64,000 nt of DNA from positions 4,606,279-4,670,278 of the forward strand of contig NZ_CP011514.1 in assembly GCF_001653795.1 (NCBI RefSeq), read 5' to 3'. Origin of the DNA: Mitsuaria sp. 7 (GTDB lineage: Bacteria; Pseudomonadota; Gammaproteobacteria; Burkholderiales; Burkholderiaceae_C). Made by a program: the position numbers and the translations under genes. Below, piece by piece: positions 50,073 through 57,857 of the stretch (positions within the stretch are counted from its first letter, which is position 1; each line of letters begins with the position of its first letter). A model generated the notes under the pieces. It worked only from the letters and a program-made list of their open reading frames with translations, searched no databases and was not told the origin of the DNA.

Positions 50073-51200
50073 ATGCCCTTGGCCCATGACGCGCGCACCA
50101 GCGGCATCGCGCTGGCACTGTCGGGCGGCGGCTTCCGGGCCGTGCTGTTCCATGTCGGCGTGCTGTGGCGGCTCAACGAGCTCGGCGTGCTGGGCAAGCT
50201 GGCGCGGATCTCCAGCGTGTCGGGCGGCTCGATCACCTCGGGTCTTCTGGCCGTGCGCTGGCCGCGGCTCGCATTCGGGGCCGACGGCCATTCCGCGCAG
50301 TTCGAGTCCGAAGTCGTCGCGCCGCTGCGCGAGTTCTGCGCGCGCAACATCGACGTCGCCTCGGTGCTCTCCGGCGCGTTCAACCCGTTCCGCTCCGCGG
50401 GAGAAGCCGTCGCCGACGAGTACCGCAAGCGCCTGGGGCTCGATGCATCGCTGCAGTCGCTGCCGGACGACCCGCGCTTCGTGTTCAACGCGACCAACTA
50501 CGCGACCGGCGTCAGCTTCCGCTTCTCCAAGCCCTACGCAGGGGACTACCGCATCGGCCTGATCCCGAAGCCGCGCTTCGATGTGGCGACGGCGGTCGCC
50601 TGTTCCAGCGCGTTCCCGCCGGTGCTCGCGCCCATCGAGCTGGACGTGCGCCCCGAAGACTTCACCAAGGTCGACGGCGCCGATCTCTACGACCAGATCG
50701 ACTACCGGCGCCGCCTGATGCTGGCCGACGGCGGCGTCTACGACAACCTCGGTCTGGAGACGGTCTGGGGACGCTACGAGACGGTGCTGGTCAGCGACGC
50801 CGGCAAGCCCTTCGACATCGACGCGGGCATCGGCACGATGGCGCCGCGTCAACTGATGCGCACGATGGACATCGGCCTGAACCAGGCGCTGGCGCTGCGC
50901 AAGCGCATGCTGATCGCGGCCTACGCGCGCGGCGATGCGAAGGGCGCGTTCTGGGCCATCGACACCGACATCGCCGACTACCCGGCAACCGAAGAAGCGA
51001 AGCTTCCGGTGGCCCCGGCGCGCGTCGCCGACCTCGCGGCGATCCGCACACGGCTCGACCGCTTCAAGGAACAGGAGCAGTGCGAGCTGATCAACTGGGG
51101 CTACGCGGTCAGCGACGCCGCGGTGAGATCGCGCTCGCCGCATGCGGCGACGCGACACCAGTCGCCGGCCTGGCCATATCCGAAGCACGCGCTGAACTGA
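50073..51200 (+). CDS. Patatin-like phospholipase
   Basis: The product has 375 residues. Patatin features: oxyanion motif ALSGGGFRAVLFH, nucleophile S50 in ISSVSGGSITSG and the catalytic Asp in LADGGVYDNLG (D219). The Gly before the usual GxSxG is replaced by Ser, as in cPLA2-like SGGS variants. No signal peptide, so it is a cytosolic lipase acting on membrane lipids. GGGAG lies 6 nt before the ATG. It is followed 37 nt later by the metallo-hydrolase, so the two probably form one transcript. Confidence 0.88.
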   Translation: MPLAHDARTSGIALALSGGGFRAVLFHVGVLWRLNELGVLGKLARISSVSGGSITSGLLAVRWPRLAFGADGHSAQFESEVVAPLREFCARNIDVASVLSGAFNPFRSAGEAVADEYRKRLGLDASLQSLPDDPRFVFNATNYATGVSFRFSKPYAGDYRIGLIPKPRFDVATAVACSSAFPPVLAPIELDVRPEDFTKVDGADLYDQIDYRRRLMLADGGVYDNLGLETVWGRYETVLVSDAGKPFDIDAGIGTMAPRQLMRTMDIGLNQALALRKRMLIAAYARGDAKGAFWAIDTDIADYPATEEAKLPVAPARVADLAAIRTRLDRFKEQEQCELINWGYAVSDAAVRSRSPHAATRHQSPAWPYPKHALN

Positions 51201-51237: not shown

Positions 51238-52461
51238 ATGTCTGACATCTTCCGCATCGAACTGCTGCCCGCGCGCCACGGCGACTGTCTGCTGCTCGAA
51301 TACGGCGACGCCGCGCGACCGCATCGCGTGCTCATCGACGGCGGTCCGATCGGCGCGTACGGCGCGCTGTCGCAGCGACTCGCGGCGCTCCCTGCGGACC
51401 AGCGCGAGCTGGAGCTGCTCGTCATCACGCACGTCGACGGCGATCACATCGAGGGCTGCCTCAAGCTGCTGAACCACCGCGAGCTGGCCACCTTCCGCGA
51501 CATCTGGTTCAACGGCTGGCCGCATATCGCGCAGCCGCTGAAGGAGCCGCCGCCGCCACGGCCCGGTGCGACAGGCACTACGGGAGCGATAGGAGCGATA
51601 GGAGCGGCGGGAACGATGGGAGCGATGGGCGGCCTTGCGGCCGCCGAGGCCAACGCCCAACGCAGCGCACTGCAGGGCTCGATGATCAGCGTCCGCATCG
51701 AAGACCGTCAGTGGAACGCGGCCTTCCAGGGCGCACCGATCTTCGTGCCGGCGATCGGTCCGCTGCCCGTGCGCGAGCTGCCCGGCGGCCTGCGCCTGAC
51801 GCTGCTGTCGCCGACGCTGGAGAAGCTCGAGAAGCTGCGCGCCGCCTGGGATCGCGCGCTGGACCGCGCCGAGCTGGACGCCACCGATGACGCCGCGCTG
51901 AGCGCGCGCCTCGAAGGCCGCGCGGCCTTCCGTTCCGGCGGACTGCGCCGGCGGCCGAAGCCCGAGGAGATGCTGTCCTCCGCCGCGCTGGCGCTCGGCC
52001 CGATCGACAACGCCGTGGCCAACGGCTCCAGCATCGCCGTGATCGCCGAGTACCAGGACCGGCGCATCGCGCTGCTCGGCGATGCGCACGCGCCGACGCT
52101 GACCGCCGCGCTGCGCCGCCTGGCCGGCGCGGCAGGAGAACCGCGCCTGCGACTCGACGCGGTGAAGATGGCCCATCACGGATCGGCCGCCAACCTGAGC
52201 GAGGACCTCCTCAGTCGCATCGACTGCAAGACCTGGCTGGTCTCGACCGACGGCAGCATCTTCAACCACCCCGACGACGAGGCGATCCACACCGTCGTGA
52301 GGAACGTGCCGGGGGTACGGCTGCTCTTCAACTACCGCTCGGTGCGAACGGCGCCGTGGGACGACCCGGCCCTTCGCGCCGCGCACGGGCACGAGGCCAT
52401 CTACCCCGCCGACGCCGCGGCGGGTCTCTCGCTCGACCTCATGACAGGACGCCCGACGTGA
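51238..52461 (+). CDS. ComEC-like metallo-beta-lactamase-fold hydrolase with Gly-X-X insert
   Basis: The product has 407 residues of the ComEC/Rec2-type MBL fold: ITHVDGDHIEG (H65, D67, D69, H70), LLGDAHAP (D282) and MAHHGSAANL (H313, H314). An insert near residues 110-132 consists of eight Gly-X-X triplets encoded by 9-bp repeats. No membrane segments, so it is a soluble hydrolase, possibly a nuclease or phosphodiesterase. Its end overlaps the convergent CHAT gene by 23 nt. Confidence 0.85.
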   Translation: MSDIFRIELLPARHGDCLLLEYGDAARPHRVLIDGGPIGAYGALSQRLAALPADQRELELLVITHVDGDHIEGCLKLLNHRELATFRDIWFNGWPHIAQPLKEPPPPRPGATGTTGAIGAIGAAGTMGAMGGLAAAEANAQRSALQGSMISVRIEDRQWNAAFQGAPIFVPAIGPLPVRELPGGLRLTLLSPTLEKLEKLRAAWDRALDRAELDATDDAALSARLEGRAAFRSGGLRRRPKPEEMLSSAALALGPIDNAVANGSSIAVIAEYQDRRIALLGDAHAPTLTAALRRLAGAAGEPRLRLDAVKMAHHGSAANLSEDLLSRIDCKTWLVSTDGSIFNHPDDEAIHTVVRNVPGVRLLFNYRSVRTAPWDDPALRAAHGHEAIYPADAAAGLSLDLMTGRPT

Positions 52462-54055
52462 CCAGCATCGCCGAGGCCCAGGCGTTGTCCTGCCCTTCGT
52501 AGCGGCGGTAGAGGCGACGCCGCGCGTGACCGAAGGCGGCATCCAGCGAGCGGCTGCGCTGCAGCATCCGGTAGAAGAGCAGCGCCTGCACGGCCGCCGT
52601 CCGGTCGTTCACCCGGCAGCGATAGCCGAGCAGCGCATGGATGCCGGCCTCCGCGGCCAGCGTCGCGAAGCCCGAATTGCCGCTTTCGCAGCTGCTCAGG
52701 TAGACGAAGCGCGTGTCGCGCAGATAGCTCAGGATGTCGCCGAAGTCGACGCACTGCGGCTCCTCCTTCGGCCCGACGAACAGGAACCCGGTGCCGCCCA
52801 GCTGCCGCGCGCCGGCCGGCTGGAAGCAGGTGTGGCCGGCGAAGTGGATCAGGTCCCAGCCGCCGTCGCCCAGCGCCGCCACGAGGCTCTCCCGGCTGAG
52901 CGGGCCGTCGAGGCCGATGACGCTGACGTTGCGCTCGTGGAAGAGCGGCTGGCCGCTGCGCGGATCGGGCCGCGTCAGCAGCTTCTTCACCCGCGCGCAT
53001 TCGCGCCGCACCGCCGTCAGCGGCGCCAGCTGCAGCGCCCCGCCCTTGAGCTGGTCGTCGTACGCCGTGCCATGCGTGTCCGCGCAGATGAGCAGCGCGC
53101 GGCGTGCCGCCACCGGACCGGCGAACAGGCTGCTCTGGCTCTCCTTCGAGGCCGCGAGCCGCCGCGACATCGACGCCGCCTTCGCCAGCCAGGGCACTTC
53201 CTGCGAGGGCTCGAACATCGCTTCGAGCAGCAACGGATAGCAGTCCTCCGACACCTCGAAGGTGATGCGGTCGGTCACGTCCTTGCCGGCATCGCCGAGC
53301 TGCTGGAAGGCCTTGAGGCGCGCGTTCTCGCGCTGCAGCCGGAAGCTCTCCTGGTCCTCGCACAGCGCGATGCGGATGCTCTTGCCGATGCGGGAGAACT
53401 CCTTGTACCAATCGGGCTCGTGCATGTACTGGGCCTGCCAGTCGAGCCGCGCCGACTTGCTGACGGTCAACGGCCCCGCCCCCGTGAACTGGAAATCGAT
53501 GCCGTGCATCTCGAAGCGCCAGTTGTCCGCGATCGCGGACACCCGGATGTCGAGGCACGGATTCAGGGCCGCCACGCGCGCCCGTCCGCCGCGGCCCGCG
53601 AGCGCGCCATCCGCTGCGCCACGGCCTGCGCCGCCTGCATCGCCGCCGGCAAAGGCACCGTCCGCTTCAGGCGACTCCAAGCCCAGCAGTTCGAGCGCGA
53701 AGCTGCCCGCCGACGCCGGATCCGCATGCAGCGTCACGCGCAGGCGGATGCAGGCCATGTTCAGTTCCGTGGTCATCGCCGGCGCGAGCAGCATCATCGG
53801 CGTGCTGCCGAGCACGCGCACCTCGCGGCAGAACGCCAGACCGCCGTCCTCGGCGACGACCGCGCCCGCGTCGTCGGCCAGTTGGCTGCCGACGATGATG
53901 TAGTCGAAGGGCTGGCCGGTCAGCAGTTCGAGCCCGGTCTCACGGTTGGTCTCTTCCTGGATCGTGTGACGGCCCAGCTGCCGCAGCCGCTTCTTGATCT
54001 GCGGACCGAGGCTGCCCTGCTGCTGCGGGCTGAGCACGAGCAGGATGTCAGCCAT
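52439..54055 (-). CDS. CHAT-domain (caspase-like) protease with receiver-like N-terminus
   Basis: The product has 538 residues. The C-terminal CHAT domain (about 320-538) has the catalytic His in WDLIHFAGHTCF (H408) and Cys in VYLSSCESGNSG (C456). The N-terminal 125 residues have the strand pattern of a response-regulator receiver (ILLVLS; FDYIIVGSQLADD; PMMLLAPA), but the phospho-acceptor Asp position is Gly/Ser and the conserved Lys is not visible. A Gly/Ala-rich linker (131-160) and a middle domain of unknown type follow. Its start overlaps the sensor gene by 8 nt. The substrate is unknown. Confidence 0.85.
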   Translation of the reverse strand: MADILLVLSPQQQGSLGPQIKKRLRQLGRHTIQEETNRETGLELLTGQPFDYIIVGSQLADDAGAVVAEDGGLAFCREVRVLGSTPMMLLAPAMTTELNMACIRLRVTLHADPASAGSFALELLGLESPEADGAFAGGDAGGAGRGAADGALAGRGGRARVAALNPCLDIRVSAIADNWRFEMHGIDFQFTGAGPLTVSKSARLDWQAQYMHEPDWYKEFSRIGKSIRIALCEDQESFRLQRENARLKAFQQLGDAGKDVTDRITFEVSEDCYPLLLEAMFEPSQEVPWLAKAASMSRRLAASKESQSSLFAGPVAARRALLICADTHGTAYDDQLKGGALQLAPLTAVRRECARVKKLLTRPDPRSGQPLFHERNVSVIGLDGPLSRESLVAALGDGGWDLIHFAGHTCFQPAGARQLGGTGFLFVGPKEEPQCVDFGDILSYLRDTRFVYLSSCESGNSGFATLAAEAGIHALLGYRCRVNDRTAAVQALLFYRMLQRSRSLDAAFGHARRRLYRRYEGQDNAWASAMLVTSGVLS

Positions 54056-56579
54056 GGATCCTCCGGCGCAGGAAGCTCAGCACGAACTCGGTGTCGCCGT
54101 CCGGCAGCACGCCGGCCTTGAGCGCGCCCCCCTGGTTCTTCATCAGCTTGCCCAGCAGCGGGTTGGCCAGGCGCAGGTCCGCCTGCGCCGCCTCGGGCGC
54201 GGAGAAGCGCTCGCCGTGGCGCCGCGCGGGCGGCAACCGGCCGCGCAGCCGCAGGAAGACGAGCTCGTCGTCCGGCACCAGCGTGAGCCGCACCATCGCC
54301 GTCTCCGGCGCCGCGCGCAGCAGCACCGACAGCAGGCTCTCCACGACGATGTGCATCTGCATGTGGTCGGCTTCCACTTCCACCTTGCGCGCCGCGGTCT
54401 CGAAGACGACCTTGCGGCGCTCCGACGCGGCCAGGCTGGCGAGCAGCGCGTCGATCTCGCAGTCGAGCCGGATCGTGCTCGCGACGCGCGAGGCCACACG
54501 CGCCTCGCGGTTGTACATGGCGAGCCGCGTGAACGCGTGCTTCACGCGCCCCAGTTGCCGCAGCACGGTCTGCAGCTCCCGCCCGCGTGCCTGCTCGCGC
54601 GCCGCCTCGGAGGCGAACGCGGCTTCGAGCTGATCCTCCAGGCACGACATCGCCATGCCCAGCGGCGCCTGCGTCTCGACGGCCAGCTCGTAGGCGGTCT
54701 CCTCGAGGAACTCCAGCTGCACCGAACGCCGGATCGGCCGCAGGTCGCGCGCGATGAAGACGTGACCGCCGAGCCTGCCCGGGAAGTCGCGCCGCGTGAC
54801 GAAGACGGAGATCGCGCCTCCGTCCGCCGCCGGCGCAGCGGCGTCCGCGCCCGGCACGACGGCACCGGGCGCTTCATCGACCACGGCGCTTGTGACGCTC
54901 GCAACGCCCGCGACACCCGGACGGCAGACGCGCAACTCGCCGATCCGGTCGCCCGCCTCGGTGCCGTCGAGCAACGCCGCCAGCGGCTCCGGGTTCTGGA
55001 ACAGCGCCAGCAGACTGCGTCCTTCCAGCGCCTTTCGGCCAACGCCGAACAGCGCTTCCGCCGCCGGATTGACACGACGGATGCGCAGCTTCGCGTCGGT
55101 CGCGATGATCGGATCGGAGACGTTGTTGACGCACTCCGTCATCAGCGTCAGATCGCTGATGCGCTCCATCGCGCCGGCCACCTCCTGCGCGATGTCGGCG
55201 AGCTGCCGCACGTGCTCCCGCGAGAACGCGTTCACCCGCGGATCGTCGACGTTGACGATGAAGCGCACGCGCTCGCCTTCCGAGAACACGATCGGCACGG
55301 CCAGCTCCGAACGGATGGGCTCGCCGTCCGGCGTCTTGACATACTCGGGGTCGCGCGTCACGTCGGGAATCTTCTGCGGCTGCATCGTCCGCACGACCCG
55401 GCCGAGGATGCCCTGGCAGAGGCCCTGCGCGTAGTCGCCCCAGGACACGCCCGTATCCACCGCAAGCCCGTCGTCGCCGCGCCGGGCCGAGGCCACGCGC
55501 ACGATCGCATCCCGCGCGCTGTCGATCCGGAACAGCGACACGTGCTGCCAGTCGAAGATCTCGACCAGCGCATCGGACAGGCAGCGGCAGGCGCCCTGGA
55601 TGTCGACGCAGCGGTTGAGCTCGCGGAACATCTTCAGCTGACGCCGGTCGCGCACGCGCTCCGCGTGGTCGAGGCTGCACAGCACCGCCTCGATCAGCGG
55701 CAGCTGGTTGAACAGCGCCAGGTGCTGCTCGTCATAGGCGCCGCGCTCGCGGCTGAGCAGCGTCATGATCGCCACGGTCCGTTCGTCCTCGCCCTCGCCG
55801 CGCGTGATGCGGCGCCACATGCTGGACTTGAGGTCCATGGCGTGCATCTGCCGGCTCATCGGCTCCTCCGCCATGTCGGACCAGGGCGGCTCGCTCATCA
55901 CCGTCTCGAAGTCGTGCACGCCGCCGCACTGGCTCTCCATGAACGCGCGCTGCGCGGCGTTCAGCTCGTACCACGCGGTCGGCACGTCCTGCCGGAACGG
56001 CGGGTGGTTGAAGACGATCTCCGACTCCCAGGCGCTGTCGTCCTCGACGACGCGCGACACCAGCATGAGGTCGAAAGGAAGCTCCCGACGCAATGCTTCC
56101 GCCACCAGCGGCAGCAGGTCCGGGCGGCCGGCGTGGCTCAGCGTGAGCGCGCGTACCTGGTCGGTCAGCACCTGGTGCTGCAGGCTGCGGAAGAAGCCGA
56201 GCGACCCGACCACGGTGCCGCGCTCGTCCATCAGCGGCAGACCCGTGACCTCGACGGCGACCTGCCGTTCCGGATCATCCTGGCAGGTCAGCGTGACGCG
56301 GTAGGCGCCGAGCTCGCGGTTGCGACGCCCGCGCGTCTCCTCGTCGAGCACGCGGCCCGCCTCGCCGGCGAAGAGCCGGTCCAGGCGCAGCTGGTCGACG
56401 TGCTCGACGCCGCTCATCGCCAGCGCCGCGGCATTGGCGTAGAGCACGTGGTTGTCGAGGTCGCGCTGGATCACGGCGATGCGCGAGCCGTCGAAGACCG
56501 CCCGCTTCATCTGCCCCAGCATCGCGGCGGCGGCCGCCGAGGTGGGCCGCAGCGCGGCGTCTTGCGCGGAGTCATCCAT
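54048..56579 (-). CDS. PAS-GAF-PAS sensor with degenerate histidine-kinase-like C-terminus
   Basis: The product has 843 residues: PAS 1 (about 25-135), a region about 140-310 possibly GAF-like, GAF (about 325-475), PAS 2 (about 478-620, IIATDAKLRIRRVNPAAEAL), then a helical and ATPase-like part (620-843). The expected H-box reads ETAYELAVETQAPL with no His, and the N-box region (HIVVESLLSVLL) lacks Asn, so autophosphorylation is unlikely. No membrane segment. I chose the ATG at 56579 (GGAGG upstream) over 56597. It is translationally coupled to the CHAT gene. Confidence 0.8.
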   Translation of the reverse strand: MDDSAQDAALRPTSAAAAAMLGQMKRAVFDGSRIAVIQRDLDNHVLYANAAALAMSGVEHVDQLRLDRLFAGEAGRVLDEETRGRRNRELGAYRVTLTCQDDPERQVAVEVTGLPLMDERGTVVGSLGFFRSLQHQVLTDQVRALTLSHAGRPDLLPLVAEALRRELPFDLMLVSRVVEDDSAWESEIVFNHPPFRQDVPTAWYELNAAQRAFMESQCGGVHDFETVMSEPPWSDMAEEPMSRQMHAMDLKSSMWRRITRGEGEDERTVAIMTLLSRERGAYDEQHLALFNQLPLIEAVLCSLDHAERVRDRRQLKMFRELNRCVDIQGACRCLSDALVEIFDWQHVSLFRIDSARDAIVRVASARRGDDGLAVDTGVSWGDYAQGLCQGILGRVVRTMQPQKIPDVTRDPEYVKTPDGEPIRSELAVPIVFSEGERVRFIVNVDDPRVNAFSREHVRQLADIAQEVAGAMERISDLTLMTECVNNVSDPIIATDAKLRIRRVNPAAEALFGVGRKALEGRSLLALFQNPEPLAALLDGTEAGDRIGELRVCRPGVAGVASVTSAVVDEAPGAVVPGADAAAPAADGGAISVFVTRRDFPGRLGGHVFIARDLRPIRRSVQLEFLEETAYELAVETQAPLGMAMSCLEDQLEAAFASEAAREQARGRELQTVLRQLGRVKHAFTRLAMYNREARVASRVASTIRLDCEIDALLASLAASERRKVVFETAARKVEVEADHMQMHIVVESLLSVLLRAAPETAMVRLTLVPDDELVFLRLRGRLPPARRHGERFSAPEAAQADLRLANPLLGKLMKNQGGALKAGVLPDGDTEFVLSFLRRRIHG

Positions 56580-56912
56580 GAGCCGCCTCCCGGCCATCCC
56601 TGGCCATCGTTGCTTGCCGACACTCCCCTGCCAACGGCTCGAAGGCTACGCCGATTGATCCGGCGACGCGCCTGACAACCTAGGGATCCGCGATCCCGAC
56701 GCGTGCCCTGCACAGGTGTCGGTGGGTGCCATGACTCATCGACGGCATCAGCCGTTGAAAGTCCACCAATCGGAGAGCGCTCCGACGCTGGCGTTGCGAA
56801 TTCCACCCCCGTAGAGTGACTGCCCTCCCCGCGACATTCCGCAGTGGAGCAGGCGCCGGCAGCCAGGGCTCGGCGATGTCGAACGCAGCGTTGCCGAGGA
56901 TGCATTCCGGCC
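56580..56912. other. Intergenic region between divergent sensor and nuclease genes
   Basis: A 333-bp stretch between two divergent transcription units. I see short inverted repeats but no convincing sigma-70 promoter, operator, RNA gene or coding ORF. It should contain promoters for both sides. Confidence 0.4.
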
Positions 56913-57857
56913 ATGAAAAAAGACCGACCGACTGATCAACACTCGCCTGATCCGGGCATTCGCATTGCATGGTGGAACACGGGACTGTCGCCGACGCGAG
57001 TGCCCGACAGGGCAAGCCCGGACGACTTCAAGCTGGCCAGCAAGATGCTGCGCCATCTGGTGGAGGACATCCGGGCGGATGTCGTCGTCCTGGGAGAGAT
57101 GGCGGAGTGCAGCGTCAAGGGCCTGCGCGAGGCCTGCCCCATCGCCCGTGCCGAATTCACCTGGCTACCCGCCTTCCACAAGGCAGGCCTGAGTCGTTTC
57201 TCGTTCTGCGTGCTCAGCAGGACGAATCGCCTCACCGTCAGTTTCAGCTCGCCCATCGTCAAAAACGACGGGGAGCGCATTTGCAAGGTGGGCCTGCACT
57301 TTCTCATCCGCCTGCACGAAGGTGGGCGACCTTTCAGCCTGATCGCGTCGCACTGGCCCAGCAGGCTCCATCTGGATCGCAGCGACAGCGCGCGAACCCA
57401 CATCGCTGCCCATCTGCGGCGATGGATAGACGACCGCATCCTCTCTCTCAGGAGCGAGAACGTCATCCTGATCGGCGACTTCAACGACGAGCCCTTCGAC
57501 GAGGGGCTGGAACGATATCTGTATGCGAGCCGGGACAGGAACAAGGTCTTGCGGAATCCCAACTTTCTCTACAACCCGTTCTGGCGCCATCTCAGTTCGC
57601 TCCCACAGCGCTCGCCCAAGGAACAGGAATGCGATGCCGGCACCTACCACCACCCCGGCGCGCAGTACTCCGACTGGCATACCTTCGATCAATTGATCGT
57701 GTCTTCGGCGCTGCTCTTCGGCCAATCCGGATGGCGTCTGAACGAAGAAAACACCCGGGTTTCAAGCGTCCCGGCGCTGGACGACGGCGAGGCATTTCCC
57801 CACGGCATCTTCGACCACCTTCCCATCATCGGACACCTGGAAAGGACTTTCCCATGA
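56913..57857 (+). CDS. Endonuclease/exonuclease/phosphatase (EEP) family protein
   Basis: The product has 314 residues of the DNase I-like fold: RIAWWNTGLS (Asn), VVVLGEMAE (metal Glu), IASHWPSR, LIGDFNDEPFDE (Asp/Asn), DWHTFDQLIVSSA and a terminal FDHLPIIGHLE (Asp-His). All catalytic motifs are present, so it is probably active, on nucleic acid or a phosphoester. The start MKKDRPTDQ at 56913 was chosen over an upstream extension. Its stop overlaps the next start by 4 nt. Its codon use looks less GC-biased than that of its neighbours, a hint of transfer. Confidence 0.82.
   Translation: MKKDRPTDQHSPDPGIRIAWWNTGLSPTRVPDRASPDDFKLASKMLRHLVEDIRADVVVLGEMAECSVKGLREACPIARAEFTWLPAFHKAGLSRFSFCVLSRTNRLTVSFSSPIVKNDGERICKVGLHFLIRLHEGGRPFSLIASHWPSRLHLDRSDSARTHIAAHLRRWIDDRILSLRSENVILIGDFNDEPFDEGLERYLYASRDRNKVLRNPNFLYNPFWRHLSSLPQRSPKEQECDAGTYHHPGAQYSDWHTFDQLIVSSALLFGQSGWRLNEENTRVSSVPALDDGEAFPHGIFDHLPIIGHLERTFP

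What the first reader, a model, noticed from the sequence alone, without database searches (positions are those of the whole stretch)
52439..56579. Two-component-like pair that lost both phosphotransfer residues, with the output replaced by a CHAT protease
The sensor has PAS and GAF input domains and an ATPase-like C-terminus, but the H-box His and N-box Asn are absent. The CHAT protein begins with a receiver-like fold whose acceptor Asp is Gly/Ser (about residue 56), then carries an intact His408/Cys456 protease. The genes overlap by 8 nt, so they are made together. This suggests a sensor that controls a caspase-like protease by direct binding rather than phosphorylation. The domain loss is seen in the sequence; the mechanism is inferred.
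Basis: partly seen in the sequence, partly recalled or inferred. Interest (0 to 1): 0.8.

Follow-up and report, generated by a model that had tools for sequence, protein, structure and literature searches.

The report
Dead two-component pair with caspase-like protease
A soil bacterium carries a gene pair that looks like a standard bacterial sensor-and-switch but has lost the parts that pass phosphate, while the switch is fused to an intact-looking caspase-like protein cutter; related pairs occur in distant bacteria, some beside other destructive enzymes, so it may be an undescribed kind of bacterial alarm.

Summary
The sensor (54048-56579, -) has PAS/GAF domains and a degenerate histidine-kinase end (H-box His is Val634; N-box Asn are Ser748/Val752). 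The CHAT gene (52439-54055, -), overlapping by 8 nt, begins with a receiver-fold domain (acceptor Gly56) and ends in a CHAT protease with His408/Cys456 intact. I found 16 related loci, 3 on alphaproteobacterial plasmids, with sensors down to about 20% identity. In each the sensor gene lies directly upstream of the CHAT gene, and 14 overlap by 4-8 nt. None of nine divergent sensors has the His by alignment; eight of eight divergent CHAT proteins keep the His/Cys dyad. A receiver profile recognises five of ten CHAT N-termini, and none of these five has the acceptor Asp; the other five N-termini are unresolved. In Roseateles the pair forms a four-gene cassette with a patatin and an Avs1a-like metallo-beta-lactamase, present together in 7 of 16 genomes. 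Some other copies lie near TIR, second-CHAT, peptidase or nuclease genes. Best reading: a sensor-protease module working without phosphotransfer, perhaps in defence. Direct binding, activity and role are inferred. Nine searches of open-licence papers showed no description.

The parts
54048..56579 (-). Sensor gene, 843 aa (PAS - GAF-like - GAF - PAS - pseudo-DHp - pseudo-HATPase)
56187..56471 (-). PAS domain 1 (residues 37-131)
   Evidence: Pfam PAS_9
55680..56132 (-). GAF-like domain (about residues 150-300; from the model only, no Pfam hit)
   Evidence: model secondary structure; match to tandem-GAF PDE5 structures
55164..55598 (-). GAF domain (residues 328-472)
   Evidence: Pfam GAF_2 8.5e-17
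54786..55133 (-). PAS domain 2 (residues 483-598)
   Evidence: Pfam PAS at 483-534, extent from model
54516..54740 (-). Pseudo-DHp helical hairpin (residues 614-688)
   Evidence: helices 614-656 and 660-688; profile aligns to ThkA, KinB, ZraS
54678..54680 (-). Val634 codon at the H-box His position
54066..54479 (-). Degenerate HATPase-like domain (residues 701-838) without N-box Asn or G-box glycines
54048..54055 (-). 8-nt overlap of sensor stop and CHAT start
   Evidence: start and stop codons checked, same 8 nt in 6 of 6 loci of the genome-contig scan
52439..54055 (-). Pseudo-receiver CHAT protease gene, 538 aa
53681..54055 (-). Pseudo-receiver domain (residues 1-125)
53888..53890 (-). Gly56 codon at the phospho-acceptor position
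53192..53566 (-). Middle region (residues 164-288) between receiver and CHAT parts
   Evidence: alignment A5; model
52460..53191 (-). CHAT (caspase/separase-fold) protease domain, residues 289-532
   Evidence: Pfam 1.5e-23; Foldseek to Csx29, separase, SAVED-CHAT
52832..52834 (-). Catalytic His408 codon
52688..52690 (-). Catalytic Cys456 codon
50073..51200 (+). Patatin-like phospholipase, cassette partner
   Evidence: Pfam 1.4e-16; close orthologue (77% or more) only in the 7 of 16 genus genomes that have the pair; others have at most distant patatins
51238..52461 (+). Avs1a/LmuA-like MBL-fold hydrolase, cassette partner; 3' end overlaps the CHAT 3' end by 23 nt
   Evidence: PADLOC LmuA 3.6e-63, Avs1a 6.7e-42; close orthologue (59% or more) only in the same 7 of 16 genomes; distant ones in G399 and G407

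Best explanation
This is one member of an apparently undescribed family of sensor-protease pairs derived from two-component systems. A soluble PAS/GAF sensor with a dead histidine-kinase core holds or releases a protease made in the same operon. The N-terminus of that protease is a receiver fold without phospho-chemistry, and its C-terminus is an intact-looking CHAT (caspase/separase-type) protease. The old kinase-receiver docking surface is kept as a regulated protein-protein contact: a ligand or state sensed by PAS/GAF changes the helical hairpin, which changes the pseudo-receiver and licenses the CHAT active site. In Roseateles the output is widened by a patatin and an Avs1a-like MBL hydrolase in the same cassette. 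The likely role is a suicidal or defensive response. Shown: domain make-up, loss of phosphotransfer residues in the window pair, conserved pairing and catalytic dyad, co-presence of the four genes in the genus, and plasmid relatives. Inferred: direct docking, direction of control, protease activity and substrates, the defence role, and that relatives with unresolved CHAT N-termini work the same way.
For: Fold and homology. A receiver profile built from 25 genome receivers and the window's own response regulator scores five of ten CHAT N-termini well above shuffles: window 8.4e-11, L040 2.5e-9, L038 9.1e-8, L039 2e-7, L149 1.4e-6; best shuffle 1.3. These five have G, E, E, G, H at the acceptor column, none Asp. 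Kinase His absent in 9 of 9 divergent sensors by alignment (G, I, V, S, Q, R, N, R, A), while CHAT His/Cys are present in 8 of 8 divergent CHAT proteins. All 21 pairs of seven sensors match by BLASTP, E 3e-13 or better over 610-930 columns. Sensor-first searches: in the genus 9 loci with strong hits, all 9 with CHAT alongside; in plasmids 3 records, all 3 with a CHAT gene overlapping the sensor end by 4 nt. Four-gene cassette: close orthologues all present in 7 and all absent in 9 of 16 genus genomes. Effector-type neighbours: second CHAT, TIR, S8 and trypsin-like peptidases and an endonuclease. Relatives of the MBL elsewhere in the genus sit in an Avs1 system and beside a caspase-like and an IetA-like gene.
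Against: No complex could be modelled and no interaction data exist. CHAT N-termini of L106 (0.62), L140 (5.1), L151 (7.7), L150 (22) and L139 (no score) are not recognised by the receiver profile; L139/L140, L150 and L151 N-termini gave no receiver in the PDB, so receiver docking is not shown for those loci. If L139/L140 are receivers, they keep an Asp at the aligned acceptor column. D51, D112 and H606 are conserved in the window's subtype. No sensor or CHAT protein tested has a significant PADLOC hit (best is L151 CHAT to SAVED_CHAT at 0.017), so defence rests on neighbours. The receivers behind the profile had first been found with a CHAT-family profile, which helps the window, L038, L039 and L040; L149 was not in that profile. 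In Roseateles the sigma-54 regulator flank is shared by 5 of 7 loci, so co-presence partly reflects shared ancestry. Prophage, integrase or tRNA association was not tested. Models are of moderate confidence (CHAT pTM 0.67, sensor pTM 0.54).
Confidence: 0.57

Rival explanations
1. The receiver-like domain is a small-molecule switch: a nucleotide or other second messenger binds in the vacated phosphorylation pocket, and the sensor only tunes it or answers a different signal.
For: Receiver domains without kinases in bacterial conflict systems have been predicted to act as nucleotide-responsive switches (PMC8195603, passages seen). The acceptor column varies (G, E, H in N-termini recognised as receivers). 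A TIR gene is adjacent in L106 and lies about 2.8 kb downstream of the CHAT gene in L149.
Against: The sensor gene is directly upstream of CHAT in the 16 loci found, 14 of them overlapping, and its kinase-derived core is retained, which a free-standing ligand switch would not need.
Confidence: 0.19
2. The sensor is a substrate or anchor of the CHAT protease, not its regulator: cleavage of the sensor releases a signal, as in other caspase-type cascades.
For: CHAT and caspase-type systems can act on a partner encoded nearby (recalled; Craspase abstracts seen in the listing). One subtype has a CHAT gene on each side of the sensor gene, which would suit a cascade.
Against: In the window the receiver fold of CHAT and the kinase-derived end of the sensor match a docking pair.
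Confidence: 0.13
3. It is a regulatory protease module for ordinary physiology (redox, light or metabolite response) and not a defence system.
For: The input part resembles PDE-type GAF pairs and, loosely, phytochromes. The sigma-54 flank is shared by 5 of 7 loci. No significant PADLOC hit for any sensor or CHAT protein tested.
Against: Patchy presence (7 of 16 in the genus), plasmid relatives, and defence-type neighbours of several copies.
Confidence: 0.3
4. A decaying two-component system: chance loss of residues in genes on their way out.
For: Several phosphotransfer residues are missing.
Against: Open frames, a conserved protease dyad and conserved pairing over sequences only about 20% identical.
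Confidence: 0.02

Closest known systems
DivL of Caulobacter (pseudokinase histidine kinase)
   Same: PAS-bearing histidine-kinase core without kinase activity that works by docking a receiver (PMC4211667, abstract and section headings seen)
   Different: DivL binds a phosphorylated receiver (DivK~P). Here the receiver partner has itself lost the acceptor and is fused to a protease.
Craspase / TPR-CHAT (Csx29)
   Same: CHAT protease of the same fold (Foldseek 8eex 6.2e-7) switched by a partner protein
   Different: Partner is an RNA-guided CRISPR effector; TPR instead of receiver; no PAS/GAF sensor (recalled apart from the titles seen).
SAVED-CHAT (8tl0)
   Same: Closest solved CHAT by sequence profile (3.1e-4 with A5; 6.7e-11 with A10); sensor-gated caspase-type protease (recalled)
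   Different: SAVED sensor domain in the same chain and filament form (entry title); here a separate sensor protein and no SAVED hit in Pfam.
HetF and PatA of Anabaena
   Same: A CHAT protease and a receiver-domain protein in one regulatory pathway (recalled); HetF model hits weakly at 2.9e-5
   Different: No pseudo-kinase sensor gene pair (recalled); the HetF hit is far below its cut-off (22.6 against 1200 bits).
Avs1 (Avs1a MBL + Avs1b)
   Same: The MBL partner is an Avs1a/LmuA relative
   Different: MBL scores 203.7 bits against a cut-off of 420 and its neighbours are patatin and CHAT; an Avs1a-Avs1b pair exists in another genome of the genus (L124).

Membership tests
Canonical two-component system | H-box phospho-accepting His in the kinase | tested here: not met
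   Val634; 0 of 21 rows of A2 and 0 of 9 divergent sensors of A11 have His at the column
Canonical two-component system | N-box Asn and G-box glycines for ATP | tested here: not met
   Ser748 and Val752, no Asn at either column in A2, A6 or A11; no GxG at the lid by my reading
Canonical two-component system | Receiver acceptor Asp | tested here: not met
   Gly56 in the window; G, E, E, G, H in the five CHAT N-termini recognised as receivers
Canonical two-component system | Phosphotransfer activity | not testable with these tools
   needs biochemistry
CHAT protease family (PF12770) | Profile above Pfam cut-off | tested here: met
   84.1 bits against 24
CHAT protease family (PF12770) | His/Cys dyad | tested here: met
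   His408/Cys456; 8 of 8 divergent members
CHAT protease family (PF12770) | Proteolytic activity | not testable with these tools
   needs assay
Receiver-bearing CHAT as a trait of all relatives found | N-terminus recognised by a receiver profile | tested here: inconclusive
   5 of 10 N-termini recognised, 5 not
Avs1 | Avs1a MBL above curated cut-off | tested here: not met
   203.7 bits against 420
Avs1 | Adjacent Avs1b | tested here: not met
   MBL neighbours are patatin and CHAT; neither hits an Avs1b model
Craspase / SAVED-CHAT | TPR or SAVED domain with the CHAT | tested here: not met
   Pfam shows only CHAT; a CRISPR or cyclase partner elsewhere in the genome was not searched
Phosphorylation-independent two-component-derived pairs (DivL-like) | Physical docking of pseudo-kinase and receiver | not testable with these tools

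The most novel reading that the evidence does not exclude
A general, mobile bacterial immune or death module: a phosphorylation-free two-component hub in which a pseudo-kinase sensor and a CHAT protease with a receiver-derived N-terminus form the conserved core, and interchangeable partners (patatin plus MBL, second CHAT, TIR, peptidases, nuclease) are plugged in, much as NLR-type sensors are paired with exchangeable executioners.
Probability: 0.32. Interest if true: 0.9.

Novelty: new variant of a known kind. Interest (0 to 1): 0.72.

Why it matters
Dead kinases and dead receivers are known one at a time. A pair in which both partners have lost phospho-chemistry, yet stay together beside an intact-looking caspase-type protease, with relatives in Burkholderiales and on alphaproteobacterial plasmids, would show that two-component architecture can be recycled into a pure protein switch for regulated proteolysis. 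It gives a directly testable pair, and the company it keeps suggests a route to defence or cell-death systems that the PADLOC 2.0 models do not pick up.

Tried and rejected
Rejected: (1) Decay of a normal two-component system, because of conservation of the pair and of the protease dyad. (2) A domain swap in L007/L039 (profile match only over 3-282): the 4914-base contig ends inside the gene, so its CHAT domain is unseen. (3) Filing the cassette as Avs1 or Lamassu from the MBL alone: score below the curated cut-off. (4) A phytochrome: the top Foldseek rows are phytochromes but with whole-length rmsd around 40; I give this little weight. (5) My earlier reading that one subtype (L139/L140) keeps the acceptor Asp: their N-termini are not recognised as receivers, so I no longer claim it.

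Led nowhere: the third protein search (A3) returned the 16 proteins already known and missed the second subtype, which was in the query, so its reach is limited. The viral-contig scan gave no relative. The plasmid search with the CHAT protein gave only the Azospirillum record; sensor queries gave three or two. Nine literature searches listed no paper describing this pair; only open-licence PMC papers are held, so this is not proof of absence. Papers opened: PMC7159879, PMC8195603 and PMC10907252 (passages only), PMC4211667 (abstract and section list only).

Limits: a locus entered the count of 16 only once both genes were seen, so 16 of 16 is descriptive; the sensor-first searches are the fairer test. 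Two weak PAS-only matches (G403:C3, G406:C12) were not followed. Of 12 matches confined to the CHAT part whose surroundings I examined (L139-L148, L001, L002; my choice, not all such matches), 2 have the sensor and became members, 10 do not; L001, L002, L142 and L147 are short or end-limited. Large genome searches scored only the best few candidates per genome, so prevalence is a lower bound. A1 left out one fragment (P0013); A2 used 20 of 27 full-length proteins plus the window (P0017 of the 27 is the window's own). In one search, 36 N-terminal-only matches with fetched loci were read: 3 were too short, 33 look to me like receivers, 32 with Asp at the site; matches without loci were not read, and the script's pattern itself counted 31 of 36 and hit an off-site stretch in 3.
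Full report
What is in the window. Two overlapping minus-strand genes lie at 54048-56579 (sensor, 843 aa from the start shared by its homologues) and 52439-54055 (538 aa). Pfam finds PAS, GAF and PAS in the first and a CHAT domain (1.5e-23) in the second, and no kinase or receiver domain in either at E<=1.

Receiver part. The CHAT family profile matches receiver domains in the PDB (RpfC 3.7e-4 over profile positions 8-113, KdpE 0.0058), with Gly56 on the acceptor Asp. The model (mean pLDDT 76.6) has alternating strands and helices typical of a receiver at 3-125, residue 56 ending the third strand. Foldseek recovers receivers such as VicR (rmsd 2.2, TM 0.81 on the target) and, for the protease part, Csx29, separase and SAVED-CHAT. 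Of 36 fetched genome matches confined to the profile's N-terminus, 3 were too short to read and the other 33 look to me like receivers. A profile made from 25 of these plus the window's own response regulator scores the window N-terminus at 8.4e-11, against 1.3 for the best shuffle.

Kinase part. The sensor family profile matches histidine kinases over its C-terminal part (ThkA 1.4e-10, KinB 4.5e-8, ZraS 8.9e-6). The His is replaced by Val634, the two N-box Asn by Ser748 and Val752, and I see no G-box glycines. The model (mean pLDDT 80.9, pTM 0.54) shows a two-helix hairpin (614-688) and an alpha/beta domain (701-838). None of the 21 rows of A2 or the 23 of A6, which overlap, has the His.

A wider family. 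I found 16 loci: seven of the window's type in 16 genus genomes; a distant one in another family of the order (G010, contig ends in the CHAT gene); a second type in the own genome and in G410; a third in G1018; a fourth in G297 and G138; and plasmids of Azospirillum brasilense, Sinorhizobium meliloti and Rhizobium sp. TH2. The sensor gene is directly upstream of the CHAT gene on the same strand in each. The overlap is 8 nt in the window and in the six loci of the genome-contig scan and 4 nt in seven others; L106 and L140 have gaps of 11 and 36 nt. Since a locus was counted only when both genes were seen, the fairer test is sensor-first: 9 of 9 strong genus loci and 3 of 3 plasmid records have a CHAT gene alongside.

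What is conserved and what is not. In eight divergent CHAT proteins His404, Gly407, His408, Ser454 and Cys456 are invariant. In nine divergent sensors the H-box column reads G, I, V, S, Q, R, N, R, A. Across the CHAT proteins the aligned acceptor column reads G, E, G, D, D, H, N, S, but only part of these N-termini is recognisable as a receiver: window, L038, L040, L039 and L149 score from 8.4e-11 to 1.4e-6, while L106 (0.62), L140, L150, L151 and L139 do not rise clearly above shuffles, and searches of L139/L140, L150 and L151 N-termini in the PDB gave no receiver. So the acceptor is lost in all five recognisable receivers, and the two D columns (L139, L140) cannot be interpreted. Against a clean story: D51, D112 and H606 are conserved within the window's subtype, and one N-terminal column is Asp in 6 of 8 divergent CHAT proteins, Pro18 in the window.

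Control. Among 12 matches confined to the CHAT part whose surroundings I examined, 2 had the sensor (L139, L140, then counted as members) and 10 did not at tblastn E<=1e-3. Four of the ten are short or end-limited, and they were not chosen at random.

Neighbourhood. The pair faces a patatin-like phospholipase gene (50073-51200) and an Avs1a/LmuA-like MBL gene (51238-52461) whose end overlaps the CHAT end by 23 nt. Close orthologues of patatin and MBL are present in exactly the 7 of 16 genus genomes that have the pair; other genomes have only distant relatives or none. The sigma-54 regulator flank is found in 5 of the 7 and the hydrolase/response-regulator/kinase flank in 3, so ancestry explains part of this. 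Other copies: a second CHAT gene with a weak DUF7363 match and an unassigned gene; a TIR gene and what I read as a type I restriction system; an unassigned third gene; and, on the plasmids, pentapeptide, TIR, endonuclease, S8 and trypsin-like genes within a few kb. Relatives of the MBL elsewhere in the genus sit in an Avs1 pair and beside a caspase-like and an IetA-like gene.

Mechanism. The simplest reading is that kinase-receiver docking survived the loss of chemistry and became an on-off contact controlling the protease. This is inferred. DivL is a precedent for a kinase core used as a binding module (PMC4211667, abstract and headings). Receivers acting without kinases as possible nucleotide switches are predicted in conflict systems (PMC8195603, passages); I keep that as the main mechanistic rival. 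The defence role rests on neighbours and patchy distribution, not on a defence-model hit for the pair.

Novelty. Nine searches of the open-licence literature listed no description of the pair. Each component family is known; the combination and its conservation appear new, hence a new variant of a known kind, with a bolder reading given separately.

Noticed in passing
L038 5602-13147 (own genome, contig C1 about 1715600-1723150): Second, diverged copy in the same genome: unassigned gene, CHAT gene with a weak DUF7363 match (below cut-off), pseudo-kinase sensor, pseudo-receiver CHAT, overlapping as longest ORFs; its acceptor position is Glu.
   Followed up: partly
L139 7548-8918 and L140 5346-6899: An unassigned protein follows the sensor-CHAT pair in both members of the fourth subtype; no useful Pfam hit.
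   Followed up: no
L123 3425-8565: MBL next to a caspase-like protein, an unassigned protein and an IetA-like AAA ATPase in another genome of the genus; looks like a separate candidate defence locus.
   Followed up: partly
L124 2477-9522: Avs1a and Avs1b side by side in another genome of the genus.
   Followed up: partly
window 56844-57857: Endonuclease/exonuclease/phosphatase-family gene divergent from the sensor; a relative lies near the sensor in only 2 of the 6 other loci of this type compared (L043, L044), so I do not count it in the cassette.
   Followed up: partly
window 52439-52461: CHAT and MBL genes overlap tail to tail by 23 nt; the same in L012 and L017, a gap in L013 and L015, and not determined in L014 and L016.
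   Followed up: partly
L106 1265-10106: What I read as a type I restriction-modification system lies downstream of the third-subtype sensor-CHAT pair, with a TIR gene upstream of the sensor; the restriction genes were not run against a family library.
   Followed up: no
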